Shown: one piece after another, positions 47,102 to 64,000 of the stretch
Layout of the letters: each line of letters opens with the position of its first letter
Numbering within the stretch: the stretch's first letter is position 1
Source of the DNA: Clavulina sp. PMI_390
Taxonomy: Eukaryota > Basidiomycota > Agaricomycetes > Cantharellales > Hydnaceae
NCBI GenBank assembly: GCA_015039315.1
Contig: WIDE01000028.1
Coordinates: forward strand, 140,676 to 204,675
Direction of reading: 5' to 3'
Length of the DNA: 64,000 nt
Notes under the pieces: generated by a model
What the model was told of the DNA's origin: nothing
Databases searched by the model: none
The model's input: the letters and a program-made list of their open reading frames with translations, nothing else
Position numbers and translations under genes: made by a program

Positions 47102-49015
<1,914 letters not shown>

Positions 49016-56116: not shown

Positions 56117-58620
56117 ATGCCTTCGACCATTAAATCGCGTCTGGAATGGCTCGCCAACCTCCAAACGGGCACCGAAATCAAGGTCACTGATGACCACAAG
56201 TTTATGCGCAAGGTTCGCCGCAGCTTTTTGTCGATTTTTTGGCCCGTACTTAGACTCGCTGGCACTGACAATGCTCGGAAATAGACGGGCATCATCGCCA
56301 CCATTGGTAAGAACGCTCCTGATTTCGGCGATCGGTCTCTGACGATGCTTACGGACTGCGATTGCTTGTTTAGGCCCCAAGGTCAACTCTGTCGAGGGCT
56401 TATCTGCCCTTCGCAATGCTGGCGTCAACATCAGTGCGTTCCACGTTGATCAAGCATTTAGCGATATGAGAACTCTTCGCTTATGGTTTAATTTGTCTAT
56501 CTCAGTGCGTATGAACTTCTCGCATGGCACGCACGAGTACCACCAGTCGGTCATCGACAATATCCGCAAGATGGTCGCAGGTCCGATCTTTCACGTTTTC
56601 CCGTCGCAGAACTGATCCTGACGCGTCCATTTCGTGCAAAATAGCTAAGCCTGGCCCTCGCCCCGTTGCGATTGCTCTCGACACCGTGCGTTCGACGTTT
56701 ATCGCGGTTGCTAATTCAGTCGCACGTTTGTTGAACTGACAATGTTCGTTCGACTCTCGCTTCATGCCCCCATTAGAAAGGACCAGAAATCCGCACGGGT
56801 GTGATGCGCCAAGGCTTCGATGTAAGTGTTCCAAAGTATGATATGTAATCTCATCGCTGACCTCTCCCCACTCCAGGATGTCAAAATCTCGGCCGGCCAC
56901 GAGTTTATTGTTACCAGCGATCCCCAATACGCCGAGAACTGCGACGACAAGATTTTGTACCTTGACTACGTAAGTGTGCATCTTAGTCTCATGCATGCAG
57001 CCCATTACTTACATCCGATCTTCAGGGCAATATTTCCAAAGTGACTGAGCCTGGCAAGTTTATCTACATCGATGATGGTGGGTTCTTCATCAGTATGGGC
57101 AAATCATATTCTAACGCCTCATGTTGTGCAATTCAATTAGGTATTCTCTCCCTCGAAGTCCTCGCTATCGATGGCAAGAACCTCAAGGTTCGCGCCGTCA
57201 ACAATGGCGCCCTCTCGTCGCGCAAGGGTGTCAACTTGCCCTCGACCCCCGTCGACCTGCCCGCTCTCTCCGAGAAGGACAAGGGCGATCTCAAGTTTGG
57301 TGTCAAGAACGGCGTTGACATGATCTTTGCCTCATTCATTCGTCGCGCTCAAGACGTGCATGACATTCGTGAGGTTCTTGGCCCCGATGGTGCCAACATC
57401 AAGATCATCGTGAAGATTGAGAATGAGCAGGGTGTCAAGAACTTTGACGAGATTCTTGCCGTCACTGATGGTGTCATGGTCGCCCGTGGCGATCTCGGTA
57501 TTGAGATTCCGCCCCAACAGGTCTTCATTGCCCAAAAGATGATGATCGCCAAGTGCAACCTCGCGGGAAAGCCCATCATCGTGGCCACTCACATGCTCGA
57601 GGTGTGTGGCTGAACGTCAAACTTCCTTTTATTCAGATAAGATGACTGACTTCTCATGGCGCGGGCTTCTCTATAGTCTATGACTGTACGTGATCGCTTG
57701 TCGCTTCATCTCTTGAGATTGTCTAAATTCTTTGCGTGTAGTACAACCCTCGCCCCACTCGGGCCGAGGTCAATGATGTCTCCAACGCCGTCCTTGATGG
57801 TGCTGACTGCGTCATGCTTTCCGGAGAGACTGCAAAGGGCAACTACCCTGTCCCATCTGGTATGTTCGATACCTGCCTCAGAACAATAGACTCGAGACTC
57901 AGATTTCCCGCTCAGTCCTTATGATGGCCGAGTGCTGCTTCCTCGCCGAGTCCGCGACCAGCTACCTCACCCTATTCGATGAACTCCGTGATGCTAACCC
58001 CCACCCAACAAGCACTGCCGAGACTGTCGCGATGGCGGCGGCGACTGCTGCTACTGAGCAGAGCGCTGATGCGATCCTCGTTCTCTCCACCAGCGGCAGC
58101 TCTGCACGCCTGATTTCCAAGTACAGGCCTTCGGTTCCCATCCTGGCCGGTATGTCTACTCCTCTGAATGTTTCCTAAACATAGAAAGCTCATGCTAACG
58201 CATCCATAGTCACCCGCAACGAGCAGACTGCGCGCCAAATGCATCTGCACCGCGGCTGCTATCCATTCTGGTACCCCGAGCCTCGCGGTATTGCCGACCA
58301 CCAATGGCAGCAAGATGTGAGCATTCTCCCTCCAATGGGCTAACGATGGATAATGACTCAGGGTTTATTTTGACAGGTTGACAATCGTATTCGCTTCGGG
58401 ATGAAGTCTGCTTTGGAGCTTGGCATCATTAAGCCCGGCGGTACCATCATTGCGGTCCAGGGCTGGAAGGGCGGTCTTGGCCATACCAACACACTCCGCA
58501 TCCTCACAGTTGTACGTAATTGTTGTTCTAGAAACAGGGCCGTCCGTGTCAAACTAACATTGAGTATTTTCTTAGCCCACCGATCCGGCCGACCTTGAGA
58601 TCATCGCCCTAGGTGCATGA
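56117..58620 (+). CDS. PYK1: pyruvate kinase
   Basis: More than ten exons. It starts [20 protein letters not shown]. Motifs in order are [46 protein letters not shown], the B-domain segment [34 protein letters not shown], the active-site [45 protein letters not shown], and [15 protein letters not shown]. The C-terminal effector domain ends [14 protein letters not shown]. It converts phosphoenolpyruvate and ADP to pyruvate and ATP. The exon at 57677-57685 is only 9 nt and codes for SMT. His replaces the usual Gln before MLE. Confidence 0.96.
57677..57685 (+). other. PYK1: 9-nt micro-exon in the pyruvate kinase gene
   Basis: Exactly three codons (Ser-Met-Thr) lie between a TATAG acceptor and a GTACGT donor. 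They complete the invariant [15 protein letters not shown]. Skipping it keeps frame but deletes residues of the conserved active-site helix. Confidence 0.88.
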
Positions 58621-59003: not shown

Positions 59004-61685
59004 ATGTTTGGGGCGACTCCGTCTTCGACGGCGTCAGGTAGCGCGTACGGTGGCCGTCCAAAGCTTTCCTCGAGCCCACTGCCGTCAACGTACTCTGACG
59101 CAGTGCACGAGAAACACCGTTTAACACACGGTGGCAGGGGGTGGAAGTCATGGTTCGCCCCCGTTGACGTGGCCATCCCTATTCCTGGCAACGCGCGCGC
59201 TGGGCCCCGCGTCCGACTTTGTCTGCCAGCACCAATTCTCCAATATCTTCGGAGGCGACCCGCTCGCCGGCGAGGTATCATCTCATACATCATCCTCGGC
59301 ATTGTTGCCATCCTCCTCGTTTTCTCCCTCGGGAAACGGTTTGCGACACGCAACAAGTCGTGGCCGGAAATCATCGCGGGACCACCGCCGACGCTCGTCT
59401 ACGGACGTTCGGACCTGCGTAGAATATGGCTATGGGAGATAGCCAGCGGGCATTATCCCAGCACACGACCCCGTAAGCTCTTTTTTGTTTGTTTCTTGCA
59501 AACTTGATTTGGTGGCTCATCCTTGACACGTATCAAGTACCGCAACAGCTCAACTTCCCTAATCTACCATACAACCCTGGCATTTCGAAGCCCCAGGAAG
59601 TGCTCAATGCTATTCCTCAAGGCTCCACGATCGGCACGGGTGTTTCGAGAACGTATTACCACGCTAATGTCACGAACCCACCATACCCACCACGACCCAT
59701 CCCAGGAAGTATAATTGACCTTGATAAAGTACAAGAATACTGCTCATTCACCACCAAACAAGTGCGTTTTAGTTTCTACTGAGGGTGTTGGCTTCTTCCA
59801 TTTACTGATTTTCAATCCACCGTTATTAGTACGTGCGGGACTGCCTCGAGATTCTTCGTCTGGGGGCAGGCCTCAACTATGGGAACAATCTCCGCCGCGC
59901 TCCTACCGACAAATGGCAACATGTCTTCACTGAGCAAGAAGATGTGGACCCCAACCGAAGACCTACATCCATATATGAGAAACCCCTCCACGCGGAACCA
60001 GACGCCAACGCTGGCCTCGAGTTCTCTAGGAAAGCAAACCGCGAACCCACCTTCATCTTCCGCGAACCCCTTTCCGTTACCCCACACAATCTTCTTTCCG
60101 AAGGACCCTGCGACCCTGAGCATCCCCATGTGTTCCACATTTTCTGGGCCGGTCCGTTCACCGACAAGCCCTATATTGCTCTCTTGTCCTTCCTTTTCAC
60201 CCAGAATGTTGGGCTACACGAAGCTCCAGGCACTCCCCCTCCTGCCAACCTCTGCCGGCCTCAAATGTGGATCTGGATCAACCCAGGTCCAGCGGCCAGT
60301 GTACCGAATCCTCGTGCTGTGCGCGACATGTACACTGCTCTCGCTGGGAATCCATGGAGCGCTCCGTTCCTCCATCCTCGATTCGAGGAGGTCATCAAGT
60401 TCAAGCTGTGGAACACTACCGAACAACTGGATGGCATCCCAGAGATCAAGGACGAATGGCGAAAGCTCCCGAGTCTGTTCAACGCTGGTGGTTATGTCTA
60501 CAATGCACCGCAGGAGAAAACGAGCTCTTCTGAGTCTTCGTCGGCCGCCGCCTCCTCAGAGGAACCGACTTCGACGTCAGAGACACTCCCTGCCTCTCTT
60601 GCGTCTGAGTTCTCCGTGTTGGCCGCAATGGAGACCGAGAGCGCTAATTCTTCCACATCGACCGGTATCCCGGAGGAGCCAAAGAAGAAAGGTGGCATTT
60701 ATGAACGCTTGGGATCCAATTCTGAGGGCGAATATGATCGCATGAGCGTCATTCTCTCTGATATGGCGCGATTTGTGCTCACTCATCGCTTTGGTGGTGT
60801 CTATCTTGATGCTGACACCATCTTCCTTCGAGACTGGGAGGAGCTCTGGGGCTGGAAAGGTGCCTTTGCCTACCGCTGGAGTCGCTTGGAGAAATACAAC
60901 ACCGCCGTTCTCAAGATGCACAAGAACTCGGCTTTGGGCAGCTGGCTGTTCCGCACAGCGCTCAAGAACGACTTCGACTTCCATCCTATGACTGTGTCGA
61001 ACTACGCAAAGGAGGCGTACATGGATGAACTCTTGCAAAGGTTACCAGATGCGCTATTCGATCCAGCATGGTTGAATGTGGAAAGCTATCAGATCGATCG
61101 CCCAGCGTTCCCGTATTTCACAGAGTAAGTCGTATTTGCGGGGTTGATTTGCTTCTGCATCGAGTCATTTGTCTGACGAGGCATTGCCCTCCTATTTTTA
61201 GGTTCAAGAATCTATTTGAACTTCCTCGAGAGACGTCAGCGCAGCCTGTTGCTCTGGGCTTCGAGAATTTCTTCCGTGGCGCATTCTCTTATCATTTCCA
61301 TAATTTCTGGTTAGCATACTTCCCGTCTCCCTTGCTGTTGTCCAAATCCTAATGCTATCTTTCCTGAAGGTGGGTGCCATTTGACCCAGCACGAAACTGG
61401 CCGGATCTGGGCAAGCGCTTCATCAAAGCCGAGCGGGCTGGGCGAGCTGCCGTTGAAGCTACCAAAACGCCGGTCGCTGCACCTACCCCTGACCCGCTCC
61501 AACCTGGGGGCTCGAATCCTGCGGCCCCAGTAAAACAGCTACCCAAGACGACGGATGATTGGGAGGACATACTCGAGGACGATGTGCGAGATCTCTCGTG
61601 GGGGACTGTGCTGAAGCGAACGTTCGAGGCGTATATCCGTGGAGAGAGGCCGAACATGTATGGCGAGTACATCGTCTGGTCGTGA
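59004..61685 (+). CDS. type II membrane glycosyltransferase with DXD motif (GT32-like sugar-binding domain)
   Basis: At least five exons. A short cytoplasmic N-terminus with many Ser and Arg residues precedes one membrane anchor (IISYIILGIVAILLVFSLG), then a lumenal domain. The catalytic core has HVFHIFWAGPFTDKPYIALL, MWIWINPGP, and the nucleotide-sugar DXD region RFGGVYLDADTIFLRDWEEL. The block FENFFRGAFSYHFHNFW follows, and the C-terminus is acidic. This is the pattern of Gly_transf_sug / Och1-like GT32 enzymes of the Golgi. The sugar and acceptor are unknown. A Ser/Glu-rich insertion (about 60515-60690) interrupts the core between the two halves and is likely a surface loop. Confidence 0.82.
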
Positions 61686-62019
61686 TCGTAATTAGCATTA
61701 TGCTGCGTCATTATATGAGGTATCTGCCTTGTTCCATCAGACACGTTTTGGACTAGTTCGTGCATGCCAGCTCTCCCAGGATCTCGCCCGGCTCCTTTGC
61801 ATCACTTCTCATAGATTTAATCATGCATTGTGTGTCAGCAGCTTTGTGATTATTGTAATCTATCTATTCCTCTCCTAGTAGCATTGGATCTTCATGTCAT
61901 CTTATTTCCCCTGCTTTCACATGTGTTAGCCCCTCTTGCTTTTGATGATTGGTTGTCTCCTGGCTCTACATCCTGCTAGCCAAGCTTGCGCATCTCACAC
62001 AAAAAGTATTACAACATTA

Positions 62020-62764
62020 GTGGAATTACGATGACGAGCCAGATCTAGAATCTACCCAGTACGTACAACAACCACCCCAGGATATAGGGTAAGAACTATG
62101 ACTAGTGACGGTCTTGAATTGGAATTATGATGGCGAAGCTAACCAGAACGACGCATGCATCAACCAGCGACCAAAAAGCGAACTTGTAAGAAGAAAGAAG
62201 CGAAAGTGGTGGAATTACGATGGTGACGGCTCCTTAAAGGACACTGGCACACATCAACCAAACACAAGCCGTAGGAAAGAAGAATGTGAGGATAACAAGT
62301 GTCCTTGATGGTGATCTATGAAGCCGTGGAATTACGATGGCGCGACCAATGAGAGCAGCGCATGCATCAACCAAAAACCCAAATGGAAATAAATTTAGGA
62401 TGTGAATGGATGGAGCATCGGACGTGGAATTATGATGGTGAAGGCTCTTGGTAGAGTTTGTCCACTCACCAACCAAGATCCAATGCAATGAGACCAAAGA
62501 AGAAAATGACGAGTGAAGAGTGAAGGAGAAGCAAATGAATGGGTGGAATTATGATGGCGCAAGCCGTTTTGAAGCATACGCGCACCAACCACAGGAAGCG
62601 GACACGAATCGAAGGGAAAGAATGAGAAGAACCTTTGGGATTACGACGACCAATCTGAGAGTAGTAGATACGCCAACCAAGGAGTAGATAGAGAATGAGG
62701 GGAAGGGAGCCTGTGGGATTATATGATGACGAATCCAGCTGAATGCTAGTACGCGCATCAACCA
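62020..62764. repeat. array of eight two-box repeats, about 78-119 bp period
   Basis: Eight copies of box A, consensus GTGGAATTAYGATGGYG, have their TGG at 62021, 62120, 62210, 62327, 62425, 62544, 62636 and 62714. Each is followed 38-48 bp later by box B, ending ACGCRYRYMAACCA (or close variants). After box B comes a purine-rich linker. The last two copies are the most diverged. The array fills the convergent spacer between the glycosyltransferase stop (61685) and the MFS stop (62807), so it would lie in 3' UTRs or a non-coding transcript. Box A can be translated WNYDG, but box B falls in different frames and stops interrupt the array. Confidence 0.85.
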
Positions 62765-62806
62765 ATCGACTAAATCAAGGATAGAATGGGAAAGAGAAAG
62801 GTGATG

Positions 62807-64000
62807 CTAGATGAGGTCAGCCGTCGAAACTGCTGCTGAAGGATTGGCGGCAGGCAAAGCGCCAGAGTTCAGTGCTTCAACGGCCGTGACACTTTTCTCC
62901 TCATCAGGGGACTGCCTTTCCTCCAGACCCCAATTTTCGTCCGTAACAACGGAGAGTGGGAGTCCTTTGGCCGGAAGGGCGACCAGCAAGCCAAGACCAG
63001 CCAGCCCAGCTGCAGCATACCAGATGTTACGGATGCCGATGCTGAACGCGTCACGAACTTGTGATCGCAGAGGCTCTGCGAGAGAAGGAATCCGGGGTAC
63101 AAGCGCATACGACAGTTCGGCCCCAGCAGGGAACTGGGATAGCAGCTCAGAAGGGAGACGGCGAGTAAGAGTATTCTGGAGGATTGTGATACCAACTGTG
63201 ATACCGAACGTCCTGCAAAGTCGTAAAACAACATTAGCACTGCAGTCTCGACTTTGGAAAGAAAAAATACTTGCTGGCCAAATTGCCTGAACCAGAACAT
63301 CAAGGCAAGTGCACTGGCGGTATCACGAACATCTAGAGGCGCTTGGACAGGGTATTGAGGAATGATGTACATTAGGCCCAGAGCAATGGCAGCGGGAACC
63401 TGGAGGCCTGCACCCATCGCGATGGAGGAACTTGAACGCAGGAGAGAAAGGATGCCATACGTAGCCACAATAAGGGGCCATGCAATGAGCATCTGTGGTC
63501 GATACTTGCCGGTAGAAGCAACAGACGCCCCCACCATGATAGCCACTGGAGCTGTAACGCGAAAAAAAAAATAGTGAGCTAGAGTACGCGCATCATTGGC
63601 TAAGCCTTCGCACCAACTACAAAGGCTGTCGGGAACATCAGCACTCCAGATATAATTGCAGACTTGAGTTTCGCCGCTTGGAAGTAGGTCGGCATGTAGT
63701 AGGGTACCAACGTTGATACCAACCCGTGGATAAACGTTTGCAGGTATCTGAGAGCCGGTCCATAAGCTTGATGACATAGAGAGAAAAAATCTAGCACACT
63801 CACCCGCTCAAACTGGTGCGATTATTGAGGAGCCTTAAAGGAATTGTAGGCTTTCTTCCCAGGGGACTGCGTTCCATAGCGGCCACATTGTCGTCGCCAA
63901 CGGTCTGCTTCTCAACGATTCCAGTCAAGGCCGTGTTAACAGGCTGGCGTTCGATATATCCTTCATATGCTAGAAAGACTGCCATCCCTGAAAACCCTAC
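62807..64000 (-). CDS. major facilitator superfamily transporter, C-terminal part (5' end beyond window)
   Basis: Partial gene running off the right edge. From the edge inward it reads GRKPTIPLRLLNNRTSLSG, then membrane helices (YLQTFIHGLVSTLVPYYMPT, LIAWPLIVATYGILSLLRSS, GAGLQVPAAIALGLMYIIPQ). TASALALMFWFRQFGQTFGI follows, then a last helix (IRNIWYAAAGLAGLGLLVAL) and a charged cytoplasmic tail ending at 62807. The order and the FRQFGQTFGI motif fit the 14-helix drug:H+ antiporter (DHA2-like) group of fungal MFS proteins. The substrate is unknown. Introns are about 50-70 nt. The repeat array lies immediately downstream. Confidence 0.85.

What the first reader, a model, noticed from the sequence alone, without database searches (positions are those of the whole stretch)
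62020..62764. Eight-unit two-box repeat array in a convergent 3' spacer
A 17-bp box (GTGGAATTAYGATGGYG) recurs eight times with 78-119 bp spacing. It is paired each time with a second box ending MAACCA 38-48 bp later, and joined by purine-rich linkers. The two boxes are far better conserved than the sequence between them. That argues against a plain minisatellite and for two recognised sites per unit: a protein-binding array, a processed RNA, or a recombination or silencing element. Read from the MFS gene, the array would be a 3' UTR with pyrimidine-rich linkers.
Basis: seen in the sequence. Interest (0 to 1): 0.75.

Follow-up and report, generated by a model that had tools for sequence, protein, structure and literature searches.

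The report
Eight paired-box hairpin repeats, fungal spacer
Just past the end of a transporter gene in a mushroom-class fungus, a roughly 50-letter motif with two matching arms is repeated eight times; it looks like a row of RNA hairpins that a protein could grip to control that gene's message, but whether it does so is untested.

Summary
The array is real. Eight units lie at 62020-62764 in the 3' spacer between a GT32-type glycosyltransferase gene (+) and an MFS transporter gene (-), start spacings 78-119 bp. Six box-1 copies match within 1 mismatch (0 of 100 shuffles reach 6); units 7 and 8 are more diverged. The two boxes are better read as two arms of one inverted repeat. On the minus strand (transporter sense) each unit fits UGG-U-UGRYG-n-RYG...CRY-CRYCR-UAAUY-CCA, approximately; CU-rich linkers do not align. 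Of 11 consensus pairs 4 have two-sided changes; RNAalifold finds none on plus. Stricter tests are mixed: whole-arm swap 0.035 (0.28 without unit 7), apical half-swap 0.0026. Against it, predicted stability is ordinary and the consensus pairs average only about 0.25 probability in local context. No second array was found in the 39.4-Mb genome, nor near 13 paralogous transporter exons. Relatives' DNA could not be searched. Best reading (0.4): a multivalent array of protein-binding stem-loops in the transporter's 3' UTR, laid out like the transferrin-receptor IRE array but not an IRE.

The parts
62714..62764 (-). unit 8, first after the MFS stop codon; 51 nt; 2-nt insertion in the 3' arm
   Evidence: (55.7 bits)
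62636..62679 (-). unit 7, 44 nt, most diverged in box 1; carries double changes at two pairs of the consensus (U-A to C-G, G-C to C-G)
   Evidence: (53.3 bits)
62544..62591 (-). unit 6, 48 nt; the only unit whose core pairs are likely in local context (0.95)
   Evidence: (55.6 bits)
62425..62475 (-). unit 5, 51 nt
   Evidence: (57.0 bits)
62327..62373 (-). unit 4, 47 nt; closest to unit 2 (identity 0.79)
   Evidence: (60.4 bits)
62210..62260 (-). unit 3, 51 nt; shares the start of its plus-strand sequence with unit 5 (92% over 24 nt)
   Evidence: (57.6 bits)
62120..62166 (-). unit 2, 47 nt
   Evidence: (55.9 bits)
62021..62074 (-). unit 1, 54 nt, last in the minus direction; one U-U mismatch in the core helix
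   Evidence: (50.9 bits)
62021..62764 (-). whole array; seven linkers of 34-68 nt, together 0.715 pyrimidine on minus, not alignable with each other
62807..63322 (-). open frame (stop to stop) with the C-terminal end of the MFS transporter, stop codon TAG 62809-62807; the exon is shorter than this frame and the gene runs on beyond the window
   Evidence: paralogues of this frame; MFS_1 in an upstream frame
59833..61685 (+). convergent GT32-type glycosyltransferase gene, 3' part: open frame 59833-61128 and last open frame 61374-61685
   Evidence: PF04488 23.7 bits, cut-off 23; names of matches

Best explanation
The array is a row of eight copies of one RNA stem-loop, read on the minus strand as the 3' UTR of the MFS transporter mRNA. 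SHOWN: eight units with conserved arms, variable centres and CU-rich linkers that do not align; arms complementary in a common register with an asymmetric internal loop (one U opposite UAAUY) between a UGG/CCA base and a UGRYG/CRYCR helix; some two-sided changes. INFERRED: that the spacer is transcribed with the transporter; that the conserved base of each stem-loop is the site of one RNA-binding protein, which may have to stabilise it; that the variable centre only closes the stem and the linkers keep sites apart and unpaired; that eight copies give graded control of stability, translation or localisation of that mRNA. It would work like the iron-responsive-element array of the transferrin receptor 3' UTR, with another motif and an unknown protein.
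For: RNAalifold: 11 pairs on minus, 4 with changes on both sides, none on plus. 96.6% of 88 cells pair against 22-72% in slid registers; 1-4 of 500 column shuffles reach four of five measures, 44 of 500 the fifth. Apical half-swap 0.0026 on minus, 0.019 on plus; whole halves 0.026 and 0.078 (ensemble). Apical parts against shuffles: combined z -4.0. Helix 2: 11 G-U against 2 A-C cells when read on minus. Arms conserved while linkers are not alignable. Position: from 42 nt after the stop codon to where the pyrimidine bias ends.
Against: Whole-arm swap only 0.035, and 0.28 without unit 7. Whole units fold about as shuffles do (mean z -0.60; only units 6 and 8 pass z -2); the 796-nt minus strand has z -0.54. 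In local context the consensus pairs average 0.24-0.26, and are 0.00 in the core of units 1, 4 and 7. The covariation columns were chosen on the same alignment; eight paralogues are not independent. Apical pairing is also above chance on plus (0.019), so part of the signal is strand-neutral. No transcript, 3' end or protein was seen; no relative's DNA could be compared.
Confidence: 0.4

Rival explanations
1. A DNA element: an array of inverted half-sites (TGG-AATTA-YGAYG and TGG-T-TGRYG facing each other) bound by a protein on the double strand, for example for transcription termination between convergent genes, an antisense promoter, or replication.
For: The complementarity is equally an inverted repeat in DNA; apical pairing is above chance on both strands; whole units are not unusually stable as RNA; pyrimidine-rich minus strand, which in the 5' flank of the MFS gene looks similar by eye.
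Against: The two half-sites have different inner spacers (1 and 5 nt) in all units, arm distances vary (units 44-54 nt), and G-U outnumbers A-C on one strand (11 to 2), though events are few.
Confidence: 0.2
2. Linear RNA motifs: the two boxes are unpaired binding sites in the 3' UTR and their complementarity is partly incidental.
For: Low pairing probability in context; whole-arm swap weak without unit 7.
Against: Slid registers pair far less and carry 0-1 two-sided pairs against 4; centres of the units also pair.
Confidence: 0.14
3. An idle, decayed tandem duplication without present function.
For: Found only here in the genome; units 2/4 and 3/5 look like a duplicated two-unit block.
Against: Arms stay alike while linkers and most of the centres are saturated, which plain decay would not give.
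Confidence: 0.14
4. A separate non-coding minus-strand RNA, for example a precursor of small RNAs, one per hairpin.
For: Repeated hairpin-like units on one strand.
Against: Units are 44-54 nt and not unusually stable; conserved bases with variable centres do not look like small-RNA guides (general knowledge). No small-RNA data.
Confidence: 0.09
5. A row of eight small introns or introner-like elements, with GGTTG as 5' splice site and RTAAT as branch point.
For: RTAAT resembles a branch point; units 8, 7, 2 and 4 have an AG 9, 9, 13 and 17 nt after it. Unit 5 holds GTGAGT a few bases further in (by eye).
Against: At the conserved place 0 of 8 hexamers fit GTRNGT; in units 3 and 1 the AG is 33 nt away and units 5 and 6 have none before the next unit; the array lies past the stop codon.
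Confidence: 0.03

Closest known systems
[quoted passage not shown]
   Same: Several copies of one short stem-loop with an asymmetry in the stem, in the 3' UTR of a transport-related gene (IRE facts from passages of PMC8466369; the layout with several copies partly recalled).
   Different: The IRE hexaloop motif CAGUG is in 1 of 8 units and not as a loop in its fold; no single bulged C but a 1-against-5 loop; no Rfam IRE match up to E 5; IRE stem-loops are about 30 nt, these 44-54.
Fungal structured RNA motifs of Li and Breaker 2017 (PMC5640933; abstract, outline, passages and sections 13-14 seen)
   Same: Structured elements in fungal UTRs or introns found by comparison; one (AU-rich hairpin) has 8 copies in Rhizoctonia solani.
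   Different: The word 'tandem' and the stem 'basidiomyc' occur 0 times in its main text; in the parts seen no row of units in one 3' UTR is described. The AU-rich hairpin has highly variable gene associations.
Polycistronic box C/D snoRNA clusters
   Same: A row of short units with two conserved boxes and variable middles.
   Different: RUGAUGA and CUGA are absent on minus in 8 of 8 units; on plus C box in 1 of 8, D box in 2 of 8.
Minisatellite
   Same: Head-to-tail copies in a non-coding spacer.
   Different: Not called by Tandem Repeats Finder at score 50; most of each period is not alike.

Membership tests
Iron-responsive element (IRE) | CAGUGN hexaloop | tested here: not met
   CAGTG in 1 of 8 units on minus, 0 of 8 on plus; not a loop in the fold of that unit. 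Feature from passages of PMC8466369.
[quoted passage not shown]
   Consensus has U opposite UAAUY.
Multi-copy stem-loop array in a 3' UTR (functional kind) | several copies of one stem-loop | tested here: inconclusive
   Eight copies of a complementary-arm unit, but weak thermodynamic support and mixed swap tests.
Multi-copy stem-loop array in a 3' UTR (functional kind) | lies in the transcribed 3' UTR | not testable with these tools
   42 nt past the MFS stop codon, but no RNA data.
Multi-copy stem-loop array in a 3' UTR (functional kind) | bound by a protein | not testable with these tools
   no binding data
[quoted passage not shown]
   minus 0 of 8 for both; plus C 1 of 8, D 2 of 8
Any Rfam family | gathering score | tested here: not met
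   3 matches up to E 5 in 61600-62900, one of them overlapping the array (14.3 bits, gathering 86), none at gathering score
Spliceosomal intron | GTRNGT at a common place and a nearby AG | tested here: not met
   0 of 8 hexamers; AG within 20 nt in 4 of 8
Minisatellite | copies alike over the whole period | tested here: not met
Dispersed mobile hairpin element | copies elsewhere in the genome | tested here: not met
   Whole-array DNA search finds only itself at E <= 10; pattern searches find no second cluster; the 5 single look-alikes score 15.0-18.8 bits against 50.9-60.4 in the array. Diverged copies could be missed.

The most novel reading that the evidence does not exclude
An undescribed class of multivalent RNA regulatory array in Agaricomycetes: one transporter mRNA carries eight copies of a stem-loop whose base, with a fixed U/UAAUY internal loop, is read by an unknown RNA-binding protein, and copy number tunes the response.
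Probability: 0.25. Interest if true: 0.65.

Novelty: new variant of a known kind. Interest (0 to 1): 0.45.

Why it matters
I found no fungal example of an eight-copy structured array in a 3' UTR in the paper searches named in Tried and rejected, which saw only an open-licence library and capped lists. If real, the array is a bait for an RNA-binding protein in mushroom-class fungi and a natural test of how copy number of a site tunes an mRNA. If it proves to be DNA-bound or idle, it remains a clean case of conserved paired boxes inside saturated linkers.

Tried and rejected
Coding sequence on plus: box 1 reads W-N-Y-D-G with variation at third positions, but box 2 falls in different frames, the frames carry stops and one unit has a 2-bp insertion (by eye). 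Coding on minus: two open frames of 87 and 99 aa have no Pfam match, and the boxes fall in different frames (by eye).

Rfam: three matches up to E 5, none near its gathering score, one of them overlapping the array. Box C/D snoRNA, IRE loop and intron readings: (motifs recalled, except the IRE features and the C/D boxes). Pol III transcription: two runs of five T on minus inside the array would tend to end it (rule recalled). Insertion of one mobile 50-bp element eight times: the centres differ and no copies were found elsewhere.

Bacterial and archaeal contigs: a hairpin-like pattern has 111 matching stretches. Only 80 were listed, and I scored those 80: 64 matches at E <= 1, best 32.4 bits, at most two in one locus, all below the array's 50.9-60.4. 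I take them as chance. Viral contigs: 22 stretches, one match each, not scored. Own-genome loci with box-like words: 11 loci (with L030, L031 in the same call) gave three weak matches outside the array, best 18.8 bits.

Papers: searches (7 papers, 7 listed; 3, 3; 0; 69, 25 listed; 21, 8; 1, 1; 197, 12; 469, 10). I saw parts of PMC5640933 (abstract, outline, passages, sections 13 and 14) and passages of PMC8466369; all others only as listing with the start of the abstract. Two listed works on conserved structures in Aspergillus and Candida (PMC2467506, PMC10926079) were not opened. So absence from print is not shown.

Species: among the 120 listed of 760 matches of the GT32 exon the best are unnamed (81%, 76%, 76%) and the best named is Ramaria rubella at 58%. 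I place the genome in or near Agaricomycetes, order unknown. The pyruvate kinase exon did not narrow it.

Full report
What is there. The window is C191:140676-204675 of a 39.4-Mb, 301-contig genome. Proteins place it in or near Agaricomycetes: among the 120 listed matches of the GT32 exon the best named is Ramaria rubella at 58%, with unnamed sequences at up to 81%. The finding lies between two convergent genes: a GT32-type glycosyltransferase on plus, last open frame ending at 61685, and an MFS transporter on minus, stop codon 62809-62807. An upstream frame of the latter has MFS_1 at E 1.3e-18, the C-terminal frame no Pfam match. The nearest NCBIfam models are of efflux and DHA2 kinds, and all 25 shown of 33 are below their cut-offs.

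Box 1 has 6 matches at <=3 mismatches in 64 kb, all in the array; shuffles average 0.40 and 0 of 100 reach 6. Two further, diverged units complete eight. Start spacings are 99, 90, 117, 98, 119, 92 and 78 bp. In the alignment of the eight trimmed units 17 of 61 columns are invariant. The units align pairwise with z 3.5-8.8 (28 pairs), the linkers with z -1.3 to 2.2 (21 pairs). Tandem Repeats Finder does not report the array.

What the boxes are. Box 2 is largely the reverse complement of part of box 1. Read on minus, the units fit, approximately, UGG, U, UGRYG, one base, RYG, a variable centre, CRY, CRYCR, UAAUY, CCA (unit 1 has UGUUG, unit 7 AUC with GGU, unit 8 two extra bases). RNAalifold on minus gives 11 pairs, 4 with changes on both sides; on plus it gives none. 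With these pairs 96.6% of 88 cells pair, against 22-72% for slid registers. Of 500 column shuffles 2 reach the paired percentage, 4 the number of two-sided pairs, 2 the number of two-sided cells, 1 the covariation score and 44 the number of pair types. The columns were picked on this alignment, so these numbers lean towards the structure. Three of the 11 pairs, the outer helix, never vary and say nothing either way.

Stricter tests are mixed. Exchanging whole 3' arms between units, all 40320 ways, gives 0.035, and 0.28 without unit 7 (53 of 56 cells, mean 52.0); the upper three pairs alone give 0.035. Exchanging whole halves gives 0.026 by ensemble energy and 0.037 by minimum energy on minus, 0.078 and 0.113 on plus; exchanging only the apical halves gives 0.0026 on minus and 0.019 on plus. 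Apical parts against their own shuffles give a combined z of -4.0, units 3, 5, 6 and 8 below 0.05, units 1, 2, 4 and 7 not; this apical part includes the three upper consensus pairs. Helix 2 holds 50 Watson-Crick, 11 G-U, 2 A-C and 1 U-U cells of 64, which favours minus-strand RNA, but related units share changes, so the independent events are few.

Against the hairpin. Whole units fold no better than shuffles on average (mean z -0.60 on minus, -0.21 on plus). With short flanks 2 of 8 units pass z -2 on minus, units 6 and 8, and 0 of 8 on plus. The 796-nt minus strand has z -0.54 with 5 of 20 shuffles as good, plus z 0.69 with 16 of 20. With 60 nt of context on each side the consensus pairs have mean probability 0.24 (outer), 0.26 (core) and 0.24 (upper) on minus, and 0.21, 0.19 and 0.11 on plus; in units 1, 4 and 7 the core is 0.00 on minus, and only unit 6 exceeds 0.5. 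If these stem-loops form they probably need a protein.

Setting. The linkers are 0.715 pyrimidine on minus (351 nt), the 43 nt from the last base of the stop codon to the first unit 0.744, the 220 nt beyond the last unit 0.368, the window mean 0.498. The array thus fills the stretch expected for the transporter's 3' UTR and stops where the composition changes; the real 3' end is unknown. Units 2 and 4 are the closest pair (0.79) and units 3 and 5 agree at 92% over 24 nt, which suggests duplication of a two-unit block followed by loss of likeness everywhere but in the arms.

Uniqueness. The whole array as DNA finds only itself at E <= 10. Box 1 with up to one mismatch has 35 places, 6 of them in the array, and no second cluster; the backward control has 12. 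CATCRTAATYCCA: 13 places, 6 in the array, control 2. Three gapped patterns of the unit have 6 of 8, 7 of 12 and 5 of 5 places in the array, controls 1, 0 and 1. The five single look-alikes score 15.0-18.8 bits, the array 50.9-60.4. Thirteen loci of about 3 kb around paralogous MFS C-terminal exons (42.5 kb) hold no match up to E 10.

How it most likely works. I commit to a multivalent stem-loop array in the MFS mRNA, at 0.4. The conserved base with its one-against-five internal loop would be the protein site, the variable centre a closing stem, the CU-rich linkers unpaired spacers, and eight copies a means of graded control. Transcription, protein and effect are inferred. A DNA-bound array (0.2), linear RNA motifs (0.14), an idle old duplication (0.14), a separate non-coding RNA (0.09) and introns (0.03) share the rest.

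Comparison. The layout is that of the transferrin receptor 3' UTR with its IREs (passages of PMC8466369; partly recalled), but the IRE's loop and bulged C are missing and no Rfam family reaches its gathering score: it may work like one, it is not one. The fungal structured-RNA paper that I saw in part (PMC5640933) describes no such array in the text seen. I therefore call it a new variant of a known kind, interest 0.45.

Noticed in passing
47516-47569: A short CT-rich tandem repeat of 15- or 18-bp units (three overlapping rows), the only tandem repeat called in the window.
   Followed up: no
61935-61955 and 62759-62779: An inverted repeat of 21 nt (81% complementary) whose arms flank nearly the whole array; one arm overlaps the base of unit 8. 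It may be a chance match or could close the array.
   Followed up: no
L186-L198 (G000, contigs C46, C198, C202, C211, C228, C230, C258, C291): The MFS C-terminal frame has 13 paralogous places in the genome at E <= 0.001, several in tandem on C202 and C228: an expanded transporter family, of which no other sampled member carries the array.
   Followed up: partly
57041-57613: An exon of pyruvate kinase lies upstream on plus (names and PF00224 of matches).
   Followed up: partly
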